Origin: Mytilisepta virgata
Taxonomy: Eukaryota > Mollusca > Bivalvia > Mytilida > Mytilidae
Direction: 5' to 3'
Length of the DNA: 64,000 nt
Assembly (NCBI GenBank): GCA_028015205.1
Contig: CM051514.1
Location: 41,866,150 to 41,930,149 of the forward strand
A model generated the notes under the pieces. It ran no database searches, was not told the origin of the DNA, and saw only the letters and a program-made list of their open reading frames with translations. Shown in pieces: positions 14,590 to 63,200 of this stretch. Each line of letters starts with the position of its first letter. Position 1 is the first letter of the stretch. Made by a program: the position numbers and the translations under genes.

Positions 14590-17395
14590 TTGACCGATTT
14601 CAATCAAATTTTGCACAATGATAGTACCCCATGAGATGTTGGTCCTAACCATTTTTCAAGTGTGGGGGGCCCCAGGGGCAGTGTCACGCCCCTTCAAATA
14701 CCTCAAAAATTGATATTTTTTGAATAGGTCAAAAATAGTTTACATTCCTACCCTATAACCATATATATTATTACTGCTTATGATAAGACGAAGGATTTGG
14801 TACCTAAGGGGGGTCTGAGGGGGCCCCAGGGGCAGTGCCACGCCCCTTCAAAAACCTCAAAAATTGATATTTTTTGAATAGGTCAAAAATAATTTAAATT
14901 CCTACCCTATAACCATATATATTATTACTGCTTATGATGAGATGAAGGATTTGGTACCTAAGGGGGATCTGAAGGGGTCATGCCCCGCACCTCAAATGAC
15001 AAAATACTTTATATCTTGAAAACCATTGAGATCCCCACCCTATAACCATATATATTATTACTGCTTATGATAAGACGAAGGATTTGGTACCTAAGGGGGG
15101 TCTGAGAGGGTCATGCCCCGCCCCCCTCAAATGACAAAATACTTTATATCTTGAAAACCATTGAGATCCCCACCCTATAACCATATATATTATTACTCCT
15201 GATGATTAGACGAAGACTTCAGTACTATAGGGGGTCTGAGGGGGGTCATGCCCCACCCCCTCAAATGACAAAAGACTTAATATCTTGAAAACCATTGAGA
15301 TCCCCACCCTATAACCATATATATTATTACTGCTTATGATAAGACGAAGGATTTGGTACCTAAGGGGGGTCTGAGAGGGTCATGCCCTGCCCCCCTCAAA
15401 TGACAAAATACTTTATATCTTGAAAACCATTGAGATCCCCACCCTATAACCATATATATTATTACTTTTGATGATTCGACGAAGACTTCGGTACTACAGG
15501 GGGGTCTGAGGGGGGTCATGCCCCACCCCCTCAAATGACAAAAGACAATATCTTGAAAACCATTGAGATCCCCACCCTATAACCATATATATTATTACTG
15601 CTTATGATAAGACGAAGGATTTGGTACCTAAGGGGGGGGTCTGAGGGGGTCATGCCCCGTCCCCTCAAATGACAAAATACTTTATATCTTGAAAACCATT
15701 GAGATCCCCATCCTATAACCATATATATTATTACTCCTGATGATTAGACGAAGACTTCAGTACTATAGGGGGTCTGAGGGGGGTCATGCCCCACCCCCTC
15801 AAATGACAAAAGACTTAATATCTTGAAAACCATTGAGATCCCCACCCTATAACCATATATATTATTACTGCTTATGATAAGACGAAGGATTTGGTACCTA
15901 AGGGGGGTCTGAGAGGGTCATGCCCCGCCCCCCTCAAATGACAAAATACTTTATGTCTTGAAAACCATTGAGATCCCCACCCTATAACCATATATATTAC
16001 TTCTGATGATTCGACGAAGACTTCGGTACTACAGGGGGGTCTGAGAGGGGTCATGCCCCACCCCCTCAAATGACAAAAGACTTAATATCTTGAAAACCAT
16101 TGAGATCCCCACCCTATAACCATATATATTATTACTGCTTATGATAAGACGAAGGATTTGATACCTAAGGGGGGTCTGAGAGGGTCATGCCCCGCCCCCT
16201 CAAATGACAAAATACTTTATATCTTGAAAACCATTGAGATCCCCACCCTATAACCATATATATTATTACTTCTGATGATTCGACGAAGACTTCGGTACTA
16301 CAGGGGGGTCTGAGGGGGATCATGCCCCACCCCCTCAGATGACAAAAGACTTAATATCTTGAAAACCATTGAGATCCCCACCCTATAACCATATATATTA
16401 TTACTGCTTATGATAAGACGAAGGATTTGGTACCTAAGGGGGGTCTGAGGGGGTCATGCCCCGCCCCCTCAAATGACAAAATACTTTATATCTTGAAAAC
16501 CATTGAGATCCCCACCCTATAACCATATATATTATTACTCCTGATGATTAGACGAAGACTTCAGTACTATAGGGGGTCTGAGGGGGGTCATGCCCCACCC
16601 CCTCAAATGACAAAAGACAAAAGACTTAATATCTTGAAAACCATTGAGATCCCCACCCTATAACCATATATATTATTACTGCTTATGATAAGACGAAGGA
16701 TTTGGTACCTAAGGGGGGTCTGAGAGGGTCATGCCCCGCCCCCCTCAAATGACAAAATACTTTATATCTTGAAAACCATTGAGATCCCCACCCTATAACC
16801 ATATATATTACTTCTGATGATTCGACGAAGACTTCGGTACTACAGGGGGGTCTGAGGAGGGTCATGCTCCACCCCGTCAAATAACAAAAGACTTAATATC
16901 TTGAAAACCATTGAGATCCCCACCCTATAACCATATATATTATTACTGCTCATGATAAGACGAAGGATTTGGTACCAAGGGGGGTCTGAGGTGGTCATGC
17001 CCCGCCCCCTCAAATGACAAAATACTTTATATCTTGAAAACCATTGAGATCCCCACCCTATAACCATATATATTATTACTTCTGATGATTCGACGAAGAC
17101 TTCGGTACTACAGGGGGGTCTGAGGGGGGTCATGCCCCACCCCCTCAAATTACAAAAGACTTAATATCTTGAAAACCATTGAGATCCCCACCCTATAACC
17201 ATATATATTATTACTCCTGATGATTAGACGAAGACTTCGGTACTATAGGGGGGTCTGAGAGGGGGCATGCCCCACCCCATCAAATGACAAAAGACTTAAT
17301 ATCTTGAAAACCATTGAGATCCCCACCCTATAACAATATATATTATTACTCCTTATGACAAGACGAAGCATATGGTACCATCGGGGGTTCTGATG
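14590..17395. repeat. Satellite-like array, about 20 units of about 135 bp
   Basis: Every unit carries CCCCACCCTATAACCATATA, TATTATTACT, GACGAAG, a run of G followed by GTCTGAG, GGTCATGCCCC and CTTGAAAACCATTGAGATCC. Two unit types alternate over most of the array (GCTTATGATAAGACGAAGGA with TTTGGTACCTAAGG, and CTGATGATTAGACGAAGACT with TACTATAGG), giving a higher-order dimer of about 270 bp. The first three units are diverged (GGGGGCCCCAGGGGCAGT). Minus-strand ORFs of 60-100 codons are by-products of the repeat. Confidence 0.95.
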
Positions 17396-17450
17396 GGGAA
17401 CTTAGTTTGGGAGACTTAGTAACAGTTCACTGTTACAATTATTACTTGTT
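17396..17450 (+). mobile_element. Probable end of the array-bearing element
   Basis: TAGTTTGGGAGACTTAGTAA is followed by the small hairpin TAACAGTTCACTGTTA. The TTTGGGAGAC word repeats the boundary motif at 13744-14490. A hairpin near the 3' end would fit a Helitron-like element, but no CTRR terminus was seen. Confidence 0.4.
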
Positions 17451-19645: not shown

Positions 19646-20330
19646 TAAACAACAAAAAACAAAACAAAACAAAAAAAAAAACAAAAAAACATATGAACAG
19701 CATGGACCCCGGCAAAAAACCGGGGGTAGACTCAGGTTCCCCGGAAGAGTAAGCAGTCTCTGCTTCCTGCAGGACACCCGCCACACTGCCCATATCCGGT
19801 ATGAGGAAGGGGCAAAATCAACGGGAAATGGTCCATTTTTATTTGGGAAACGGTTTTTTCATACCTTTCAACCAAGTCATAATGACGTCCATAAAACTTT
19901 AATAAGGATGACTGCAACTTAGGAGCAACATACCCCTGTTTGAGTAACTTTTCTGTCAGGAGCCTGGCTCTGTCTAGGAAGTCAATGTATATGTCACAAG
20001 CTATAGAATAACGTATTAGTTGTGAAATATACACTCCATACACCAGCGCTTCTGAAATGTAGCCACTCAAAAATGGGAAGTTGACAATTGGAAGGTCAAA
20101 GTCATCCCGTTTGTCGTAAAGTTTGTATTCAACCTTCCTCTGGTGTCAATTGCAAGGTGAAGGTCAAGATAAAATGAAGATTTGGCAGAGTCTGTGGTAT
20201 CCTTAGTTTGGGGATGAATAACAAATGTACGCGTTATGTTTATTTTCTTTAACAGTTCTTCACATCTGGTGAGGAAAGATTTCGTAAATTTTAGAAGGTG
20301 ATTTCGTTTATTTCTGATCATCATATTTCC
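19646..20330 (-). mobile_element. Decayed RT-type retroelement, C-terminal ORF part and 3' tail
   Basis: The minus strand reads, in two frames, through a region with a YLDLHL-type motif (about 20180), then, after a one-base shift near 20118, ...ISQLIRYSIACDIYIDFLDR... and KFYGRHYDLVERY, ending near 19732. Similar text is at 57955-58150 (KFYGRHHELIHHY). This is the C-terminal end of a reverse-transcriptase ORF common in bivalve genomes; whether it is non-LTR or Penelope-like I cannot decide. The tail (GGGGTCCATGCTGTTCATAT on the minus strand, then an A/C-rich run) follows. It is frameshifted and cannot be active. Confidence 0.7.
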
Positions 20331-47379: not shown

Positions 47380-47965
47380 TTAAAGACGTATTTGATTTGA
47401 ATACAAAGTATTAATATGAGGGTCTTAAACATCTAATTTGGTTTTTTTTTCTAACGTCAGGACAAAATTTGCAAGATATCCTAAATTGAAAGCATTCAAT
47501 TCAGCTGCCTTCAAACTAAGATGAAGATTTTCACCATTTTAAGCCTTGCATGGGTCATACAAATTTTACAGGGAATTACTAGAACCTACACATACAGCAC
47601 GATATTACGCTAATGTGTATTATTGTGAAAAATGGTCGTAATGGTAATTGGTATTTTCTAGTTGACAAATGTAGATGTATACATAATTTGATTTAATGCT
47701 TCACTAAAAATAATGTGCAAGTTGTTCCTTAATGGTGAACGTTTGCAGCATGTGCTTTGAATTCAAAATTTAATGATTTGGAAATATATAATGGGCTATA
47801 ATTCCTATATAAGAAGTTTTGTTTAACAGATTAGCAGCTTTGTAGCATATTATTCTACAGCTTTGGTAAGTTATATCAAACATAATCATTTGCTGCATTT
47901 TTTCATATATGTTCAGGTGAAACTAATTTTGAGTTAACTAATATGCATATCGGAAAAATATCTTT
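47380..47965 (+). promoter_or_regulatory. Duplicated promoter/leader region, copy 1 (with TATA box)
   Basis: Matches 49880-50400 across about 500 bases (GTAATTGGTAT.TTC.AGTT, TTTGATTTAATGCTTCACTA, CATGTGCTTTGAATTCAAA, TAATTCCTA, GCTGCATTTT). This copy has a TATA box, CCTATATAAG (47805-47813), and about 50 bases on a donor CTTTG|GTAAGTT (47865/47866), so it looks like a promoter plus a short untranslated first exon (about 47836-47865). No copy of the signal-peptide exon was found between here and 49300. It may be a leftover of a duplicated peptide gene, or a distal promoter for the gene at 50677. Confidence 0.5.
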
Positions 47966-49879: not shown

Positions 49880-50400
49880 AAAATATCTCTTTAAAACGTA
49901 TTTTATTTGTATACAAAATAGGTAATATGAGGGTATTGTTGTCCTGGCGTAATAATACATTTTTTTCGATATATGTATATCCTAAGTTAATACCATTTCA
50001 TTAACCTGTATTCGGCTTAAAACCATTTAAAGATATGAATCGTACAAATTGTGCAGGAAAATACGAGCTTACACGTACACGACTTTATTGTATTAATGTG
50101 CATTGAGATGCAAAAGGGTCATAATAGTAATTGGTATATTCCAGTTCATATATTTGCACATAATTTCGTTTGATGCTTCACTAGAAATAATATGCCAGTT
50201 GTTCGGCAATGGCAACATGTGCTTTGAATTCAAATTTAATTATTTGAAATTTTAATGAGTTAAAATTCCTAAATGCATGGTAGCCGCTTTGCATCATATA
50301 ATTCTACCTTTTCGGTACGTAACGTAAAAGAATATTATATGCTGCATTTTGTACATATATGTGATCAGATGAAACTAGCAACTATTTCTGCTCATGGAAT
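49880..50400 (+). promoter_or_regulatory. Duplicated promoter/leader region, copy 2
   Basis: Copy of 47380-47965, directly upstream of the Cys-rich peptide gene. The presumed first exon ends at CTTTTCG|GTACGT (50314/50315). The TATA box of copy 1 is missing here: CCTAAATGCATGG stands in its place, with about 15 bases deleted. Confidence 0.45.
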
Positions 50401-50673: not shown

Positions 50674-53600
50674 AATATGAGGACGATTGTTTTGTTTGGT
50701 ATTTTGTTCCTAGTATTTGCAGGTATTATATCTTAAAATTTGTTCCGTTTCATATCGTTCTTATTGCGTCCATTATGTAAAATAATTACTACTACAGTAT
50801 ATTTTCAAATCATCAGGAATACAAAAAGATGTGTCTGAAATCAACAGTAAACTGAATATGAGCTCAAATTTGCCAGCGTGGTGCAATACTGATTACTTCC
50901 AGTAAAAGAAACATTTATGAATTGCTTTCTGAAGTAAAGTCAAGAAATACCAAAGGGATATTCGAAGGAAGGAAAAATAAAAACAACTGACAGACTCCGG
51001 AAAACAACGAAGTCAAGACCAAAACAATGCATGCACTACAATTAAAAACTAGAAACATATGCACAACATGGACCCAACCAAAAAACCGGGGGTAGACTCG
51101 GGTGCTTCGGAACTGTGAATTTAGCGAATAATATTATTCAACTTAAATGTATATGGTGATAAATTGATAATATCTTGGGATAGTGCAGCAACATTTTACT
51201 GTAAACACAATCCCTTCTCAATCGGAAGACCCGCAAATTCATATTTCTAAAATTCAACAATTTTGAACAAATAGAAATAAAAAAATAAGTAAATAAAATA
51301 AAATAATAACTTAAATTGATATTTGTCACTGGATATTTCAGAAGAAGAAATGGATTTAAAGTATACTTAATTGTAAGATGTGAAAATAAATTGGATACTG
51401 AATATGATCAATATCATTATTGTATGCAATGTCATGTCATTTAACATCTTTAAAAATGATATATGATTGCCATTAATAAGGTACGTGTATGAGGTAGCTA
51501 AAACTGGCGAGATACAGATTTTTATGATATTTTTAATAGAGCTAAAATATTCAAAACAACATCTAAATATACAAAAGTCAGTATATAGTCAAACGTGATT
51601 TAAAGGGCATCTCTATATAGCAAATCACTGTCTATAAAGGGCATAGTGAAAAAGTCCCATTTACGAACAAAGGATGTAAAATTAACCTCTGTATAAAGGG
51701 CACCTACCCAGAAAGGGCATTTTTACTGGGCCTTTGGGTGCCTTTTATAGACAGGTTTGACTGTATTTTACTTTTATAATTCGTCAACAAAGGTTGATGT
51801 AAAATATGAAAAAATAAAGGCCGTTTACTGTAGAATCATATAAATAAAGCCGAAAAATTTGTTTACTTCAAGTCATTTCTCACAAATCCTTTCTTATAGT
51901 TTTCTATAAAAGGATATTTTATGATCCCCCTACTGGCGAAGCCGGAGGGGACTTTAGGTTTGCACTCCGTCAGTCCGTCTATCCGACAGTCCGGCAAATC
52001 AGTTTTCCGCACTTTTTGTCAGTTGTGCTTGAAGATATTGACTTGATATTTGGTACATAGTTTTATCATGATTAGTTACAGATCAAGTTTGAAATTTGTT
52101 CCGGTCTGATGATTTTTTGCAGAGTTATGGTACTTCGACTTAGAAAATTCACCCAAATAATAAGCTTTCCGCACTTTTTTCCGTCATGCTTGAAAACATT
52201 GAATTGATATTTGGTATATAGTTTTACCATGACAGATTACAGATCAAGTTAGAATTTCGTTTCGTTCGGACGATTTTTTTTGCAGAGTTATGGTTCGCGG
52301 ACTGAGAAAATCCACGCAAATAATCAGTTTTCCGAACTTTTTTCTTCATGCTTGAAGATATTGATTTGATATTTGGTATATAGTTTTACCACGTGACCGA
52401 GTTCAAACTCGTTCCGTTTGGATGATTTTTTTGCAGTTTGAACCTCAGTTTTGGCATTTAATCTTGAAGAAGTTAAATAAAAATAGCACTGATCGGATTA
52501 TTATTTTGAGAGTTATGGACTTTGGAATTAGAAATTATTGTAAAAATAATAGTATTCCGAACTTTTTTTTGCAAACCTTTTGACCAAGTGATTTTATTAG
52601 TAAGTGAGCTTATAATGATGAGCTACAGAGCAAGCTAATCGGGTAATTATGGTGTACCCCTTACAAACATAGTTTCAGGATTTTTATAAGTCACTTTGTC
52701 CACACGTCTTCGTCCGATTCACATACTTTAGGAGATTTTGCGTGTTTTCTCATAGCTCAAGCCGGTAGGGGACATTGTACTGCCCAGCAATACTTTCAGA
52801 ATGCTTGTTGCTTTTAACATTTCTGTTTTATTGATGTTAAAAGAAGATATGATCACCTTCTACGTTCAACTAATAGTGCAAAATAACAATCAAAAGATAC
52901 TAATATTAGATATAGTAAATTTATACTATTAAACACCATTCCATTAAAAGTGTTAAAACACTAAGCATCTGCATTATAGCGCTACTTCGTTGATACATTT
53001 AATGACAGTACAAAGAACATTTCAAAGGCAATAATATATCATTTTTGAAAAATAAATATAGTGACAGGATTTTGAGAAATAGTAATTATAATATGAAGCG
53101 ATTTCGACGCGCAAACTATGTATTTACAATTTTGTTTGCTAAAAATCGATACACAACATTTTTAAAATCATTAAGTTACAAATATGTAAATATATTAATT
53201 TTTTTATATTTAGATGCATTTCAGCATGTTCGACATACTCTATATGCATGCAAACTTTTATACACATCTGACGTATATTAATGTTGATATAGTTCAGTCT
53301 TCTTTTCTCCTGGCTCGGTACTTCTTTGCGCATATTCGTGCTGATTGTCACACACAAACAATACAGTGCAGTGTTTTTCTTCAAAATCTCAAACATTTCT
53401 CTGAAATATGAATAAATTGCTGACGGTATCTTTGTTCCACCCAGTCTTAATGGATCATTAGAATAAAACTCTTCCGTCTGTATGCCCAAGTTTTCTGCAA
53501 GGAGCAGATTTTCAATTTTCATTTAGCATTTCTTTTTAATGCCTTAAATATAACTTAACCCGACAAACGTGAGGCAGGGGCAAGTTTCCTATGTAGTTAT

Positions 53601-56388
53601 TTAAACAATCTGAACTCAGTATCTATTATATTAAAGAATTCCCGCCATATTTACTTTCTGTATAACTACAAAATTACTACAAAATTAATAATTCAAGTAC
53701 AATATAATTTTTTCAAACAGGACTTCAGGAGTCTGAAACAGTTGTCTTCCGCCAATGCAATAGAGTGTGTAGACGTGGAGGAAACTGTGCCTGTCGCGGA
53801 TGCTGCTTTTGGCGGAGATGCAGAAGGGGAAGATGTAGAAGGATTGATGGGAGAACACGATGTGACTGTACGAATTGTAAGTAATGTAACGAAAATTAAA
53901 TTCAACAAAAGGGGCCAAGAAGGAATAGTAGACACACCTGAATGTTTAAACATGTATATATCCACTGTACATACAGCATCATTTACTAGTTTTAAGGAAA
54001 ATCATATTTGTATTCTTCTTATAATTTTACTAAACATTTAAGCATTTCCCAGACAAAAAGGTTAAGTCTCACTCCCTACACGGATATCACACATATGTAA
54101 TAGGGTTCTTGTTTTGATTTGAATCTGATTGTTTACGGCCGAAACTCGACGAAATAAACCTATCTGAATCTCCTTTCAAATCATCGCACAACTACGACGA
54201 ATCATAAATTTAATTTAGTGAATATAGAATGTAAGGTAGTGAACTAAAACGAATAAACACAAAAAGCAGTTTCTCAGTGATTAGAAACATTTATTTACTC
54301 AGATGCTGAAGGTTTAAAATAGTATTTTTTTTCGAAACTTTTACTTTTGTTGATGGTATAATGATAGTGTTGCATTTCCATTGTTCTCTACCTTGAAGAT
54401 AACAATGAATTTTTAATTCATGCTTTATGGAAATGCTTTTGATAAATTTACACGGAAAGATTGTTTCATTAGAATTTCGTACAGGTCATAATTCTGTATG
54501 TTTTACCAAAGTTTTCATATTCCTTTTGACAACGAAAAGACGCCTGATTAATTTCGTAAAGTAAATAAAATATAACAAGAGCCTGAATCCCTCACCTGTT
54601 ATCTTTTGTGTACCAGAAGATCTTGCATCAATGATTATGTTTGCTATTTAATGTATACCGTCACAATTTTCTCCTTATTATTAACCTGTAGAGCTAAAAT
54701 ATAGAATCCTGAACCCAAATAGATATGGTTCCTAGGGACTTTTTCATCGGTTGCTAGGACTTTTTCAATGGCATTGACTCTTGACCTTCAATTTTAACAT
54801 GAACAGGTAAATTGTAGGGTCTGAACCTAAATATATATGGTTGCTAGGGACTTTTTCATCGGTTGCTACGGACGTTTTCAATGGCATTGACTTTAACCTT
54901 CTATTTTGACTTGAACAGGTAAATTGTAGGGTGCTGAACCCAAATATATATGGTTGATAGGGACTTTTTCATCGGTTACTATGGACTTTTTCAATGACCT
55001 TGACCCTTGACCTTTCTTTTTGACTTGTACACGTAAATTATAAAGTCTTTAATCCAAATATATCTGGTTGCTAGGGACTTTTTCATCTGTTGCTAGGGAC
55101 TTTTTCATCGTTGCTATGGACATTTTCAATGACCTTGACCTTGACGCTCCATTTTACTTGAACTGCTACCATTTAATTTATTTCAAGTAACGCCCTAAAC
55201 AGCTGTGACAATATCAGACCATTATTTGCTGTTTACATGTAAATAATATTTCAAGGGCAAAAACTCCTATAAGGGGTCAATTGACGATTTTGGTCTGTTG
55301 ACTTTTTTGTAGATCTTACTTTGCTGAACATTTTTGTTGTTTACAGTTTGCCTTTATCCATTACTATATTCAAGATAACAACCTAAAACTGCAAAATTTC
55401 CTTAAAATTAAAAATTCAGGGGCAATAACCCAAAAAGGGTTGTCCGATTCATCTGAAAATTTCATGGCTGGTAGAACTTGACCTGTTGAACATTTTTACC
55501 GCAGTCAGTTTTGCCCTCAATGCTTTGGTTTTTGAGATATAAGCCAAAAACTGCATTTGACCTCTATGTTTATTTTTTAATTTTAGCAACACTGGATCAA
55601 AACTTCGGATACACTTTATAAACTAGATACCCTAAGGAACATTCAGTTAAAGTTTGAAGGTATTTTGCCCAGTAGGTTAAGAGGAGAAGATTTTTGAAAT
55701 AGTTTACGACGACGACGACGACGACGCCGCCGCCGGACGTGACGACGACGGACGCGAAGTGATGGCATAAGCTTACATGGCCCTTTGGGCCAGATGAGCT
55801 AAAAATGAGGAAAAGGGAAACAATGCGACTTTTTTAAAAAGAAAATTATTACATATTCTAATTCAATTGCATTATAAATACTACTGCAGAGAGAATAAAT
55901 TTTTGTTTCTGTACTTTTGGAACTCCGCTTTATGTTTATTCCATATAATGTTTCTGATAAAACGCGTCACTTGATTGGTCAATGTTTTTACGTCTATCAT
56001 AGACTAATTTGTTTTTTACTATGACGTCATTAAAGGGAATCCCAACGTTTTAGACCTCAAAACAACCGTTGGAATTAAATTATAATGATTGACAGTAATT
56101 GTGTTTTCAGTCTATTCGAACTAACCTCAATGCACATGGTACACACTTTCAAATAAGCGGCTACGCGGGTTATTTGGTATCTATCAAGTGCTTGGGGTTA
56201 TTTCTTCAAAGAGTGAAACAAATTATAGTCAATCCTTAGATATCCTTACCCCATATATTCTTTCTTCATTTTATTTGAAGTTCAAATTAACCGCAGTTAC
56301 TATATGAATGCAAAATTTCAAAACCGGACACAAATAATATTATAATGGTATAACAATTATAAAACCTTACCTCTTCGACTATACAGCC

Positions 56389-56419
<31 letters not shown>

Positions 56420-56761
56420 CAATCAGATTTTGTGTTGAATTGCATAGTATAACATGTAATGGTGTATAACCAGTTCCTTTTGTCAGAACGAAGCCAGAGG
56501 TATTGATTTGTCAATTTACGGATTCTCCTTATATTGCATAATTTTTATTCATTAAACAAGAGAAAGTCCTTTAATATTTAATGCTTTTAAATGCAGAATA
56601 CAGATCTTTAATATGAAATTCCCATGACCGTAAAGTACCGCATGTTTGCTTCAATATCTTTGCTACTGACAATGAATATAATGGCTATAATTTAATATCT
56701 TAAATGTTTTATTCACAGGTTGAGGTTATAGAAACTAAGACAATTGAAAGTAAGGAATAAA
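50674..56761 (+). CDS. Secreted Arg-rich 11-cysteine peptide (candidate antimicrobial peptide)
   Basis: Exons: acceptor TTTTTATTTACAG|AAT then ATG at 50677 to 50722; 53721-53876; 56719 to the stop at 56721-56723, with AATAAA at 56756-56761. Phases match (1 and 1), giving 68 residues. Residues 1-16 (MRTIVLFGILFLVFAG) are a signal peptide. A short spacer, LQESETVVFRQ, precedes a core of about 41 residues with Cys at 28, 32, 38, 40, 43, 44, 49, 54, 63, 65 and 68 and about 13 Arg against 2 Asp. The last five Cys are spaced x4-x8-x1-x2, as in myticin. The first half (C-x3-C-x5-C-x-C-x2-CC-x4) is unlike myticin, mytilin or mussel defensin as I know them. The gene plan (leader exon, signal exon, mature exon, 3' exon) is that of mussel antimicrobial peptide genes. 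Predicted role: membrane-active immune peptide of haemocytes or mucosa (inference). Confidence 0.75.
50677..50722 (+). CDS. Exon 2 of the Cys-rich peptide gene: signal peptide
   Basis: Preceded by a polypyrimidine tract and CAG (50673) and followed by the donor GCAG|GTATTA. It encodes 15 residues plus one base of a Gly codon. The acceptor three bases before the ATG implies an untranslated exon upstream. Confidence 0.75.
50817..50905 (+). CDS. Possible alternative or relic second exon
   Basis: Acceptor TTTTCAAATCATCAG|GA accepts the signal exon in the same phase and gives 28 further residues (GIQKDVSEINSKLN... ending AWCNTDYFQ) before TAA. It has one Cys only. A weak donor, CCA|GTAAAA (50901), would not keep frame with the 53721 exon. 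It may make a short alternative secreted peptide, or be a decayed exon of an older form. Confidence 0.3.
50930..51115 (-). mobile_element. Retroelement 3' tail fragment in the peptide gene intron
   Basis: Reverse complement of the tail at 26690-26885 (AACAACTGACAGACTCCGGA; AACATGGACCCAACCAAAAA; CCGGGGGTAGACTCGGGTGC). Confidence 0.7.
51583..51772. mobile_element. MITE with pogo/Tigger-like ends
   Basis: Left TATAGTCAAACGTGATTTAAA and right TTTATAGACAGGTTTGACTG are inverted. The interior carries repeated AAAGGGCA words (TATAAAGGGCATAGTGAAAA). No ORF. Inserted in the large intron of the peptide gene. Confidence 0.65.
51915..52800 (+). repeat. Interspersed repeat with internal subrepeats
   Basis: Begins TGATCCCCCTACTGGCGAAG. 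Three or four subunits of about 180 bases carry CAGTTTTCCGCACTTTTT, GCTTGAAGATATTGA, GATATTTGGTATATAG and TTTGCAGAGTTATGG. It ends GTAGGGGACATTGTACTGCC. Frequent mollusc intergenic repeat type; no protein. Confidence 0.65.
53139..53522 (-). CDS. Unknown ORF in the intron, weak
   Basis: ATG at 53522 and 127 codons. The first half (MKIENLLLAENLGIQTEEFY..., FYSNDPLRLGGTK) has a balanced composition, the second half reads like AT-rich noise. It lies antisense within the peptide gene's intron, just upstream of the mature exon. No family recognised; may be a fragment of a retroelement or host ORF. Confidence 0.2.
   Translation of the reverse strand: MKIENLLLAENLGIQTEEFYSNDPLRLGGTKIPSAIYSYFREMFEILKKNTALYCLCVTISTNMRKEVPSQEKRRLNYININIRQMCIKVCMHIEYVEHAEMHLNIKKLIYLHICNLMILKMLCIDF
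53721..53876 (+). CDS. Exon 3 of the Cys-rich peptide gene: mature peptide
   Basis: Acceptor TTTTTTCAAACAG|GACTTC, donor AATT|GTAAGTAATG. It encodes ten of the 11 Cys and begins the last. If the donor is not used, translation continues TGT AAG TAA, so the Cys is kept and Lys is added. If it is used, the next exon supplies GT TGA, giving Cys then stop. Core motifs: CRRGGNCACRGCCFWRRC and RRGRCRRIDGRTRCDCTNC. A plus ORF in the other frame (53742) and minus ORFs are shadows of this exon. Confidence 0.75.
53877..54715. other. Intron of the peptide gene, nothing recognised
   Basis: AT-rich. Confidence 0.4.
54716..55800 (+). repeat. Large interspersed repeat with about four 110-bp units and GAC-rich end
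   Basis: 54716-55150 holds four units of GGTTGCTAGGGACTTTTTCA...TGACCTTGACC type. It continues through AACTCCTATAAGGGGTCAAT and ends in (GAC)n (55706-55733) and ACATGGCCCTTTGGGCCAGA TGAGCTAAAAATGAG. The terminal GGCCCTTTGGGCC palindrome and the motif order are those of a repeat very common in bivalve genomes (general knowledge). Confidence 0.7.
55801..56390. other. Intron of the peptide gene, nothing recognised
   Basis: Contains two CRE-like words (ATGACGTCAT at about 56021) but no gene. Confidence 0.4.
56390..56416. repeat. Poly-A run
   Basis: About 25 A residues; the tail of an old insertion is possible. Confidence 0.6.
56719..56761 (+). CDS. Exon 4 of the Cys-rich peptide gene: last codon and 3' UTR
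   Basis: Acceptor ATGTTTTATTCACAG|GTTGAGG completes TGT then TGA. AATAAA follows 33 bases later. In the other phase the exon would read VEVIETKTIESKE then stop, an acidic tail like the C-terminal propeptides of myticins and mytilins. With the donor chosen above, that frame is not reached. Confidence 0.5.
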
Positions 56762-57490: not shown

Positions 57491-57954
57491 AATACTATAT
57501 TATTGTCTTCCTCGTTACACTCTTTCGAAAATAAAGTTTTAACTATGCTGGATATAAAACACAAACCAGATATTGGGTTATGCGTTATTCAAAAGATTGC
57601 ACTAAACCTAGGAAACTTGGGTTGGATCCAGTTGGTTTGTTAATATTACAAAAGGTCTGTACACTATGCACACAACAGTGTGGATGTAGGCACGTATTAC
57701 TGAACATACAGCTGTCTAAAAAACACACGATTCCCAAGCTGAACATTGCCAAATCTATTCAAAATAGAAGGTTGGATACTCTTTGATAATCCACCTACAG
57801 TCTCGTCCAAATTCAGTAACAATTTTTTATTTATAATAACTAAATTGTTATATTACTTATATAAAGCGCGCCAATTAATCTTATAGAAACTGAGTATGTA
57901 TAGTGTGAAATGTAGGTGTTAACTATGGTTTATTGAAAATTACACCATTATTTA

Positions 57955-58410
57955 GTGTGTTACCATGACTTTCGACAAAGAGGATTACTGCTGTCACAAA
58001 AGCTTCTTAACCAGGGTTTTATCAGGGATAAGTTGATGTCATCACTTAGGAAATTTTACGGTCGTCATCACGAATTGATTCACCATTACAGTGTTCAAAT
58101 ATCTAAGATGATGTTGGACCTGTTCCCACTGTCGTACGGCTCTTTCATGTGCCTCCACCGACTTGTGACTTCCCCAGGATTGACATTGTTGAACTTCACG
58201 ACGGATGCCATATACGGAGCTGGAACTGCTTACCCTTCCGGAGCACATGGGCTCACTCCTGGTTTTTATAGGAGTTCTTGTTGTTCATTGTTTTTTAGTT
58301 TTCTGTGTTTATTTGTTGTGCTTGTGGTTGTTCATTTGTCTTCCCGGGGTTTGTCTGTCCAATGGATTACGTTTTTTGATTGCTCCTTAGATATATTTGT
58401 CCTTTTTTTA
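57955..58410 (+). mobile_element. RT-type retroelement C-terminal fragment and 3' tail
   Basis: An open frame to about 58140 reads LLLSQKLLNQGFIRDKL, then KFYGRHHELIHHY, the same domain end as the minus-strand copy at 19732-20070, followed by TACCCTTCCGGAGCACATGG and the tail seen at 4022 and 7770. The 159-codon frame includes tail sequence and is not a complete protein. 5'-truncated. Confidence 0.75.
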
Positions 58411-59187
58411 GAGCGTGGAATATTAAAAATTTAAATCATAGTAAGTGTCTAAAGTTTATATATAAAGTCTCAGTCTCAGGAAGGCTGTATATCTCAGTTT
58501 GTTAATAATCGGGGATACCCTAGAGCTTAATGTAATATTATATATATTCTATAAGTAGTGTAAAATTAAAACTGAACGTTTGATCCTGAAGTACGTTGCA
58601 CCGAACTGAGTCTCTCAGTTTTCTATAAATAACAAGGGTTTGAAAGTTTAATGAGTAACATTAATGACAAATTTTTAAAAACGGAAGTTACCGACAACTA
58701 CATTCTAAAACATGCGTTTTAATTTAAACACTTTGTTTACGCATTTAGATCTAAACATGTTTAGGATTGTGTTTAAAACCTAAATGTCAGTTTATAAAAC
58801 GCATTTAATTTCTAAACGGGTTTAGATTTTGAACCTAAACATTCCTAAATTACCAGTAAAAAATGTTATCCTTGATATTAAGCAATTGTTTACTCTAACT
58901 ATTCATAAAAAATTAAAAGGATTGTTTAGAGTTATTGGTTTATATTAACCAGAAAACGCGCGAAAAGTGCGCCGTATTTTCAATTAGTTCAGTCTAAGAG
59001 GTAAGTTTATTCAGGAACCTCTCAGCTGTTTTCCTTTCAAACCAAAAAACAAACAATGAGACCGAAATGTTATACAGAACTAAATATTTGAATATTCCGT
59101 TTCACTTGGCAGTTCAATACCGACACAGATTCCTCCAGGTGGCGCGCGCGTATTTCCTGTTACATTAGATCACACAAAGGCGCCAAA

Positions 59188-60994: not shown

Positions 60995-61266
60995 GAGATC
61001 CTGGTGCTCAAGGTGGGTGGCATTGTTTATGCTAGATATCATAGTGCTCAAGATTGGCGACTTGTTAAGCAAGTGATCCTGGTGCTTGAGATGGGTGACA
61101 TTGCTATACAAGAAATCCTGGAGCTTAAGATGGGTGACATTCCTAAGCAAGAGATCCTGGTGTTCGAGATGGGTGACATTTCTAAGCAAGGAACCTGGTG
61201 CTCAAGATGGGTGATATTGTTAAGCAAGAGATCCTAGTGCTCGAGATGGTTGACATTGTTAAACAA
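60995..61266 (+). repeat. 39-bp repeat array 1
   Basis: About seven units of GAGATCCTGGTGCTCAAGAT GGGTGACATTGTTAAGCAA type. The period of 39 keeps a frame: plus strand (E)ILVLEMGDI(A/P)KQ repeats, minus strand also open. Units are diverged at single bases. Confidence 0.9.
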
Positions 61267-61496
61267 GAGTGGATGAGATGAGTAAAATGCTATCAAGAGG
61301 TAGAGTCCAGTTAGATATTTTAAGGATATTTTTGAACTTAAGGGTTGTCTGAATGGGTAGAGAAACTAAATTTATTAAAAGCTGCAGCACTTTAGCTCTT
61401 TTTTTCCTTTGTTGTTTTAGTTTTTTAAACTATTTTTTGTGCATTTTCCTTTCCTGTTTTTTAATATGCGAGCACATATATTAATTTTTTTTATAG

Positions 61497-62968: not shown

Positions 62969-63200
62969 ATGAGATCCCTGTGCTCAAGATGGGTGGAATT
63001 GTTTATGCTAGATATCACTGTGCTCAAGATTGGTGACTTTGTTAAGCAAGAGGTCCTGGTGCTTGAGATTTGTGGCATTGTTATACACGAGATCCTGGAA
63101 CTTGAGATAGGTGACATTGCTAAGCAAGAGATCATGGTGCTCAAGATGGGTGACATTGTTAAGAAAGATATCCTAGTGCTCGAGATGGGTGACATACATA
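62969..63200 (+). repeat. 39-bp repeat array 2
   Basis: Six units of the same family as 60995-61266 in the same orientation. The leading unit and its upstream bases (TTTGTA.ACTTTTT..AA.ACGAGATGAGATCC) are shared, so the arrays arose by duplication of a larger segment. Confidence 0.9.

What the first reader, a model, noticed from the sequence alone, without database searches (positions are those of the whole stretch)
50677..56723. Candidate new family of Arg-rich, 11-cysteine secreted peptide
Three exons join in phase to a 68-residue precursor: signal peptide, short spacer, then about 41 residues with 11 Cys and about 13 Arg. The C-terminal half has the myticin spacing (C-x4-C-x8-C-x-C-x2-C), but the N-terminal half, with C-x-C-x2-CC, matches neither myticin, mytilin, mytimycin nor mussel defensin that I know. 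An odd Cys number suggests a free thiol or a disulfide dimer. Sequence facts are direct; the antimicrobial role is inferred.
Basis: partly seen in the sequence, partly recalled or inferred. Interest (0 to 1): 0.88.

Follow-up and report, generated by a model that had tools for sequence, protein, structure and literature searches.

The report
Undescribed cysteine-rich secreted peptide family
This is one gene of an apparently undescribed family of small, secreted, positively charged, cysteine-rich peptides, probably antimicrobial, that has multiplied in clusters in what looks like a bivalve genome, adding to the question of how shellfish diversify their innate immune weapons.

Summary
In detail: three exons with GT/AG sites give a 68-residue precursor with 11 Cys and 14 Arg after the signal peptide. 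Sixty simulated windows never exceeded 8 Cys in 41 open residues. It is not a lone gene: the genome holds 13 copies in one cluster; 9 of the 12 modelled are intact. Nineteen further places on contigs C7 and C14 hold relatives; 16 were read, and ten of these align to the first cluster (hhalign 96.7%, E 3.6e-10). Neighbours carry a twelfth Cys; distant relatives have 9 to 11, so odd counts recur. C-x3-C, G-x-C and C-x-C, the CS-alpha-beta signature, persist, but fold prediction was inconclusive. No match passes threshold in Pfam, the PDB or 5.8 billion proteins. Myticin, mytimycin, CRP-I and I84 tests fail; mytilin similarity is inconclusive at best. The mature exon is about twice as diverse as its flanks. 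Best reading: a new defensin-like defence-peptide family. Expression, disulfides and antimicrobial action are inferred. 'Bivalve' is likely; 'mussel' is unproven.

The parts
50677..50722 (+). signal-peptide exon (MRTIVLFGILFLVFAG, phase 1 end); preceded by an acceptor-like acag|AAT, so a 5' UTR exon probably lies upstream
   Evidence: conserved in 10 of 11 neighbouring copies looked at, and present in L046
53721..53876 (+). mature-peptide exon with all 11 Cys (the last Cys codon is completed by exon C)
   Evidence: 12 relatives in the same cluster
56719..56723 (+). coding part of the terminal exon: last two bases of the Cys codon and stop TGA; 3' UTR follows
   Evidence: terminal exon recognised in 11 of 11 neighbouring copies
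50723..53720 (+). intron 1 (2998 bases)
53877..56718 (+). intron 2 (2842 bases)
50065..50377 (+). upstream block shared with the upstream regions of copies; a second copy of the block lies at 47582-47927; candidate promoter/5' region, not proven

Best explanation
A gene of an apparently undescribed, lineage-expanded family of secreted, cationic, disulfide-rich host-defence peptides. Shown: signal-peptide exon, one mature exon and a stop-carrying terminal exon, conserved between copies; tandem clusters; strict Cys conservation with variable residues between. Inferred: the signal peptide sends the peptide into the secretory pathway, the conserved C-x3-C, G-x-C and C-x-C cysteines form a CS-alpha-beta-like or gamma-core hairpin fold, and the Arg-rich surface binds anionic microbial surfaces. 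The optional pair h/l adds a fourth core bridge. One cysteine of the N-terminal set is unpaired in odd-numbered members such as this one, giving a free thiol or a disulfide dimer; a twelfth Cys in the neighbouring copies would pair it.
For: Exon structure; 13 clustered copies, 9 of 12 modelled intact; 19 further places, 16 of them read, ten of which are homologous to cluster A by hhalign prob 96.7%, E 3.6e-10, and five of which beat Cys-fixed shuffles, p 0.0005-0.045 in 10 of 10 pairs. C-x3-C, G-x-C and C-x-C in 14 of 14 chosen rows, in 12 of 12 copies and in 14 of 16 of the distant places (L061 and L063 lack C-x-C in the frame read). PMC5116183 (passages) names G-x-C and the Cys-stabilised helix for CS-alpha-beta peptides; the C-x3-C and C-x-C wording is recalled. 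Cys h and l occur together in 7 of 14 rows and are both absent in 7, as a bonded pair would, matching C4-C8 of mussel defensins and mytilins (PMC7168163 passages). Net charge +3 to +10 in 11 precursors. Mature exon diversity .126 against .066 and .057 in flanks and .029 in the signal exon; 0 of 814 shifted blocks of exon length reach it. A variable mature region with a conserved signal region is also reported for CRP-I (PMC10138031 passages).
Against: No expression data and no activity data. AlphaFold models are weak (pLDDT 54.7 and 68.7); the first has only a short helix at residues 9-13 in a part under pLDDT 50, not at C-x3-C, and the second has none; Foldseek finds nothing below E 7. hhalign against 20 mytilins gives only 2.2% and 7.9% (pairwise E .021 and .0043). 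pN/pS at non-Cys codons is 0.95 with a bootstrap range 0.54-1.73, so positive selection is not shown. One 60-column stretch of the 3' flank is as diverse (.149) as the exon. In myticin-C the introns vary more than the exons (PMC3164099 passages), unlike here. Several relatives are weakly charged. No anionic pro-region as in myticins and mytilins.
Confidence: 0.6

Rival explanations
1. A divergent branch of the known mussel CS-alpha-beta peptides (myticin/mytilin superfamily) or of ASABF-type peptides, not a separate family.
For: The only Pfam hit of the precursor is Myticin-prepro (E 2.9), and the myticin profile led to the second cluster. Cluster A's core spacing C-x3-C-x4-C-x4-C-x8-C-x-C-x2-C equals Perna canaliculus mytilin 8 and nematode ABF-2; chance for the frame 1.8e-4 and 9e-5 given the Cys number. 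L004 against ABF-2 p .008 and against mytilin L p .049; Antimicrobial25 E 0.23 in 1 of 11 and 0.32 in 1 of 4 precursors. hhalign superfamily against mytilins pairwise E .0043, probability 7.9%.
Against: All below library thresholds; window copy against mytilin L p .54, mytilin 8 p .62, ABF-2 p .11; ABF-2 similarity p .01-.7 over six copies; the wider profile A6 no longer lists ABF-2 in the PDB; the spacing breaks down in clusters B and C; no C-terminal extension.
Confidence: 0.25
2. Secreted protease inhibitors, as in the mollusc 12-Cys family I84.
For: 12 Cys, tandem clusters, small secreted peptides, mollusc-like host (PMC9198434 passages).
Against: I84 array, acidic pI 4.98-6.11 and splitting of the Cys 6+6 over two exons are not met here: all Cys in one exon (the last codon completed by the next), pI 8.3-9.6.
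Confidence: 0.07
3. Another secreted role: toxin-like or signalling peptide, shell or mucus component, or metal binding.
For: A mature exon more diverse than its introns resembles some venom peptide genes (recalled); the best, insignificant PDB hit of the precursor is a metallothionein fusion, E 0.24.
Against: Signal peptide and fixed Cys spacings argue against metallothionein; nothing else found points to these roles.
Confidence: 0.08

Closest known systems
Myticins (PF10690; PMC7356231, passages read)
   Same: Cationic secreted mature peptide of about 40 residues on its own exon after a signal-peptide exon; last five Cys spaced x4-x8-x1-x2 (myticin spacing recalled and from the finding)
   Different: 8 Cys there; about 40-residue C-terminal region there, 0 to 3 residues here; profile score 8.6 against cut-off 28.5
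Mytilins, including the alternative arrays of mytilin K/L/N and Perna (PMC7168163, four sections with Table 1 and passages read)
   Same: C-x3-C-x4-C, C-x-C-x2-C; odd Cys and possible dimers are discussed there for Perna; the long C1-C2 loop of 7 in mytilin L equals the gap between Cys c and e of the window copy
   Different: No convincing residue similarity beyond Cys; no anionic extension; more Cys here
Nematode ABF-2 / ASABF type (PF16839)
   Same: Core Cys spacing of cluster A identical over 29 positions
   Different: Below thresholds (E 0.24, 0.23); extra N-terminal Cys and CC here
Mytimycins (PMC8004829, passages and Table 1 read)
   Same: 10-14 Cys, secreted
   Different: All five listed arrays start with CC; EF-hand extension
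CRP-I knottin-like peptides (PMC10138031, passages read)
   Same: Clustered, hypervariable mature region, conserved signal region
   Different: Six-Cys C-C-CC-C-C array in the last exon after a propeptide
Family I84 protease inhibitors (PMC9198434, passages read)
   Same: 12 Cys, tandem clusters
   Different: Array, charge and exon layout

Membership tests
Myticin | Pfam Myticin-prepro gathering score 28.5 | tested here: not met
   8.6 bits, E 2.9
Myticin | 8-Cys array | tested here: not met
   11 Cys here, 12 in 11 of 11 relatives of the cluster listed
Myticin | C-terminal region of about 40 residues encoded by the last exon | tested here: not met
   0 to 3 residues after the last Cys before the stop in 11 precursors
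Myticin | 4 exons, first one 5' UTR only | tested here: inconclusive
   acceptor-like acag before the ATG conserved; the 5' UTR exon was not found
Mytilin | sequence profile similarity | tested here: inconclusive
   hhalign probability 2.2% and 7.9%, pairwise E .021 and .0043, against 20 of the 30 Table 1 mytilins; pairwise shuffles p .05-.97
Mytilin | anionic C-terminal extension | tested here: not met
CS-alpha-beta superfamily | C-x3-C, G-x-C, C-x-C in order | tested here: met
   window and 12 of 12 copies; 14 of 16 distant places, L061 and L063 excepted
CS-alpha-beta superfamily | helix plus two strands with three core disulfides | tested here: inconclusive
ASABF/ABF (PF16839) | profile cut-off 27 bits | tested here: not met
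   11.5 bits, E 0.32, in 1 of 4 precursors; E 0.23 in 1 of 11 mature peptides
Mytimycin | array beginning with adjacent CC | tested here: not met
   array against Table 1
Mytimycin | EF-hand C-terminal extension | tested here: not met
   stop directly after the mature exon
I84 inhibitor | C-x5-8-C-x4-5-C-x7-9-C-x4-CTC... array, 6+6 Cys over two exons | tested here: not met
CRP-I | six-Cys knottin array in the final exon | tested here: not met
Any antimicrobial peptide | kills or inhibits microbes | not testable with these tools
   needs the peptide

The most novel reading that the evidence does not exclude
A new peptide superfamily with its own fold plan, at least 32 loci in three clusters, in which an ancestrally odd set of cysteines keeps one thiol free for dimerisation or cross-linking, and in which separate branches even out the odd thiol in different ways (a twelfth Cys in cluster A, a Cys right after the C-x-C in L056, L057 and L062, loss of one Cys in L055), with the mature exon evolving faster than its own introns.
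Probability: 0.3. Interest if true: 0.75.

Novelty: new variant of a known kind. Interest (0 to 1): 0.5.

Why it matters
If borne out, bivalves gain another large, clustered family of defence-like peptides that homology searches with myticin, mytilin or defensin miss. The set offers natural variants of one scaffold with 9, 10, 11 and 12 cysteines, useful for testing how disulfide number and an unpaired thiol affect stability, dimerisation and activity, and how immune loci diversify a mature exon faster than the introns around it.

Tried and rejected

Considered and dropped: that the odd Cys count is a recent loss in this gene (first idea from cluster A, still so worded in my notes). Clusters B and C lack the same Cys and this gene shares their ES...C start, so a gain in the neighbours is likelier; no test of direction was run. 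Also dropped: that the x4/x8 spacing alone proves myticin or ASABF kinship, because it changes in clusters B and C. Results against my reading: pN not above pS, no helix at C-x3-C in the models, mytilin similarity absent or marginal, L061 and L063 without C-x-C in the frame read, one flank stretch as diverse as the exon, and big defensin, mytilin and myticin queries empty or below cut-off in the genome (an empty answer there proves little).

Dropped rows: L021 (no signal exon, in-frame stop) was left out of the divergence, selection and structure sets; L046 was found later and is not. L014 (no GT donor) and L023 (acceptor ACAC) stayed in the divergence sets. Of 19 places, 16 were read; alignments A6 and A7 hold 10 of these 16, chosen for diversity and for an unbroken array (left out: L049, L050, L052, L053, L061, L063), and A6 also 4 of 13 from cluster A. 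A4 holds 20 of the 30 mytilins of Table 1. A5 holds 9 of 13 cluster A copies.
Full report
WHAT IS THERE. The terminal exon supplies only the end of the last Cys codon and the stop. Sixty simulated windows of similar composition reach at most 8 Cys in 41 open residues.

IT IS A GENE FAMILY. The window lies at C7:41866150-41930149 of a 1.03 Gb genome. Twelve places, its own included, matched the window exon, and 13 matched a 12-Cys copy, each between 41.92 and 42.22 Mb on C7; the tool warns that such counts are lower bounds. The 100 kb upstream of the window has no match, so the window gene is the first of the array as far as seen; the other outlier, L046, with a charged insert of NDRGRD units (gap of 29 instead of 7 between Cys c and d), lies at the far end. 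Signal-peptide, mature and terminal exons were recognised in 10, 11 and 11 of the 11 neighbours first fetched. Of the 12 copies modelled (window included), 9 have open frames and standard splice sites; L014 lacks the GT donor, L023 has ACAC for the acceptor, and L021 lacks the signal exon and has an in-frame stop. The precursors of the neighbours have 74-79 residues and 12 Cys, the window's 68 and 11.

TWO MORE CLUSTERS. The myticin profile gave four sub-threshold places in this genome; one of the four, fetched because it lay on C7 and had no stop, encodes a peptide with the same NC-x-C-x2-CC core. Queried in turn it gave 20 rows, that is 15 places on C7 (51.72-52.13 Mb; two rows are pieces of one place) and 4 on C14. 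Sixteen of these 19 were read. Most start ES or YS shortly before the first Cys and carry 9 to 11 Cys of the same series; L061 and L063 lose the array's end in the frame read. Cluster A against ten of them: hhalign probability 96.7%, E 3.6e-10 over 36 columns. Pairwise scores beat shuffles that keep the Cys fixed in 10 of 10 pairs tested (two cluster A peptides, five relatives), p 0.0005 to 0.045. Cluster A queries did not find these places directly. In L047 the mature exon also ends in a phase-1 donor and a nearby acceptor leads at once to a stop (my reading of the DNA). A simple screen of 4 kb upstream of L047 gave no convincing signal exon.

CYSTEINE LOGIC. Naming the cluster A cysteines a to l (C-x7-C-x8-C-x7-C-x-C-x2-CC-x4-C-x4-C-x8-C-x-C-x2-C): b, c, e, f, g, i, j, k are invariant in the 14 rows of A6 and d in 13; a is confined to cluster A outside the window gene; h and l are both present in 7 rows and both absent in 7 (three of the latter have a Cys directly after k). 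e-x3-g, G-x-i and j-x-k are the C-x3-C, G-x-C and C-x-C of CS-alpha-beta peptides, and h-l corresponds to the C4-C8 bridge of mytilins (PMC7168163, passages). The h/l pattern rests on few lineages and is weak evidence. Odd totals recur: 11 in the window, L058 and L060; 9 in L047, L049, L050, L051, L052 and L054 (counts in the conserved series up to the donor). L055, L056, L057 and L062 have 10, cluster A 12. So an unpaired Cys, or a dimer, looks like an old state and not an accident of this gene. This is inference.

EVOLUTION. In ten neighbours the mature exon has nucleotide diversity 0.126, its flanks 0.066 and 0.057, the signal exon 0.029; 0 of 814 shifted blocks of the same length reach the exon's value, although one 60-column stretch of the 3' flank has 0.149. 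pN/pS is 0.82 over all codons and 0.95 outside Cys (bootstrap 0.54-1.73), with no change of either kind at the 12 Cys codons. That is fast evolution with Cys constraint, not proof of positive selection; higher exon than intron divergence may also reflect introns being homogenised. Myticin-C, by contrast, is reported with introns more variable than exons (PMC3164099, passages).

COMPARISON. No known family is matched above threshold. Sub-threshold leads are Myticin-prepro (E 2.9), nematode Antimicrobial25 (0.23) and ABF-2 (0.24). The core frame of cluster A equals that of ABF-2 and Perna mytilin 8; random placement of the same number of Cys gives that frame with probability about 1e-4 (the frame was chosen after seeing it). 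Outside Cys, similarity to ABF-2 varies (p 0.01 to 0.7) and to mytilins is absent or marginal (L004 against mytilin L p 0.049, the rest above 0.2; hhalign 2.2% and 7.9%). Both structure models are weak and show no helix at C-x3-C. I therefore do not file it under any of these families; it may work like them.

HOST. The C1q profile has 150 scored matches over cut-off among 526 candidates. Such expansions are typical of bivalves (recalled). Mytilin M and L, myticin and big defensin queries found nothing over threshold. So 'bivalve' is likely and 'mussel' unproven.

LITERATURE. Paper searches were run; of PMC7168163 I read the abstract, sections 6, 9, 11, 22 and passages; of PMC8004829 passages and the figure and table section; of PMC7356231, PMC10138031, PMC9198434, PMC5116183, PMC3164099, PMC7653742 and PMC5549309 passages only. 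Nothing I saw describes this array. The library holds only open-licence papers, so absence from print is not shown.

VERDICT. A real gene of a real, apparently undescribed peptide family, most likely host-defence; mechanism inferred.

Noticed in passing
L046, about 1351-1605 (C7:42.2148 Mb): A thirteenth copy at the far end of the cluster has a charged insert of repeated NDRGRD units between the third and fourth Cys and a short first intron (about 470 bases by my count).
   Followed up: partly
G000 C7:51.72-52.13 Mb and C14:2.55-2.60 Mb: Two further clusters of related 9- to 11-Cys peptides, some ending C-x-C-C; three of the 19 places were not read.
   Followed up: partly
window 47582-47927 and 50065-50377: The upstream block of the gene is duplicated in the window and repeated up to three times upstream of L020; possible promoter repeat.
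   Followed up: partly
window 14750-17398: Large tandem array with units of about 135 and 269 bases.
   Followed up: no
window 60995-61269 and 62971-63195: Two arrays of nearly the same 39-base unit (GAGATCCTGGTGCTC...), about 2 kb apart.
   Followed up: no
window 19732-20145 (-) and 57937-58434 (+): Repeated open frames with a shared KFYGRH motif, probably from a mobile element; no Pfam match over cut-off.
   Followed up: no
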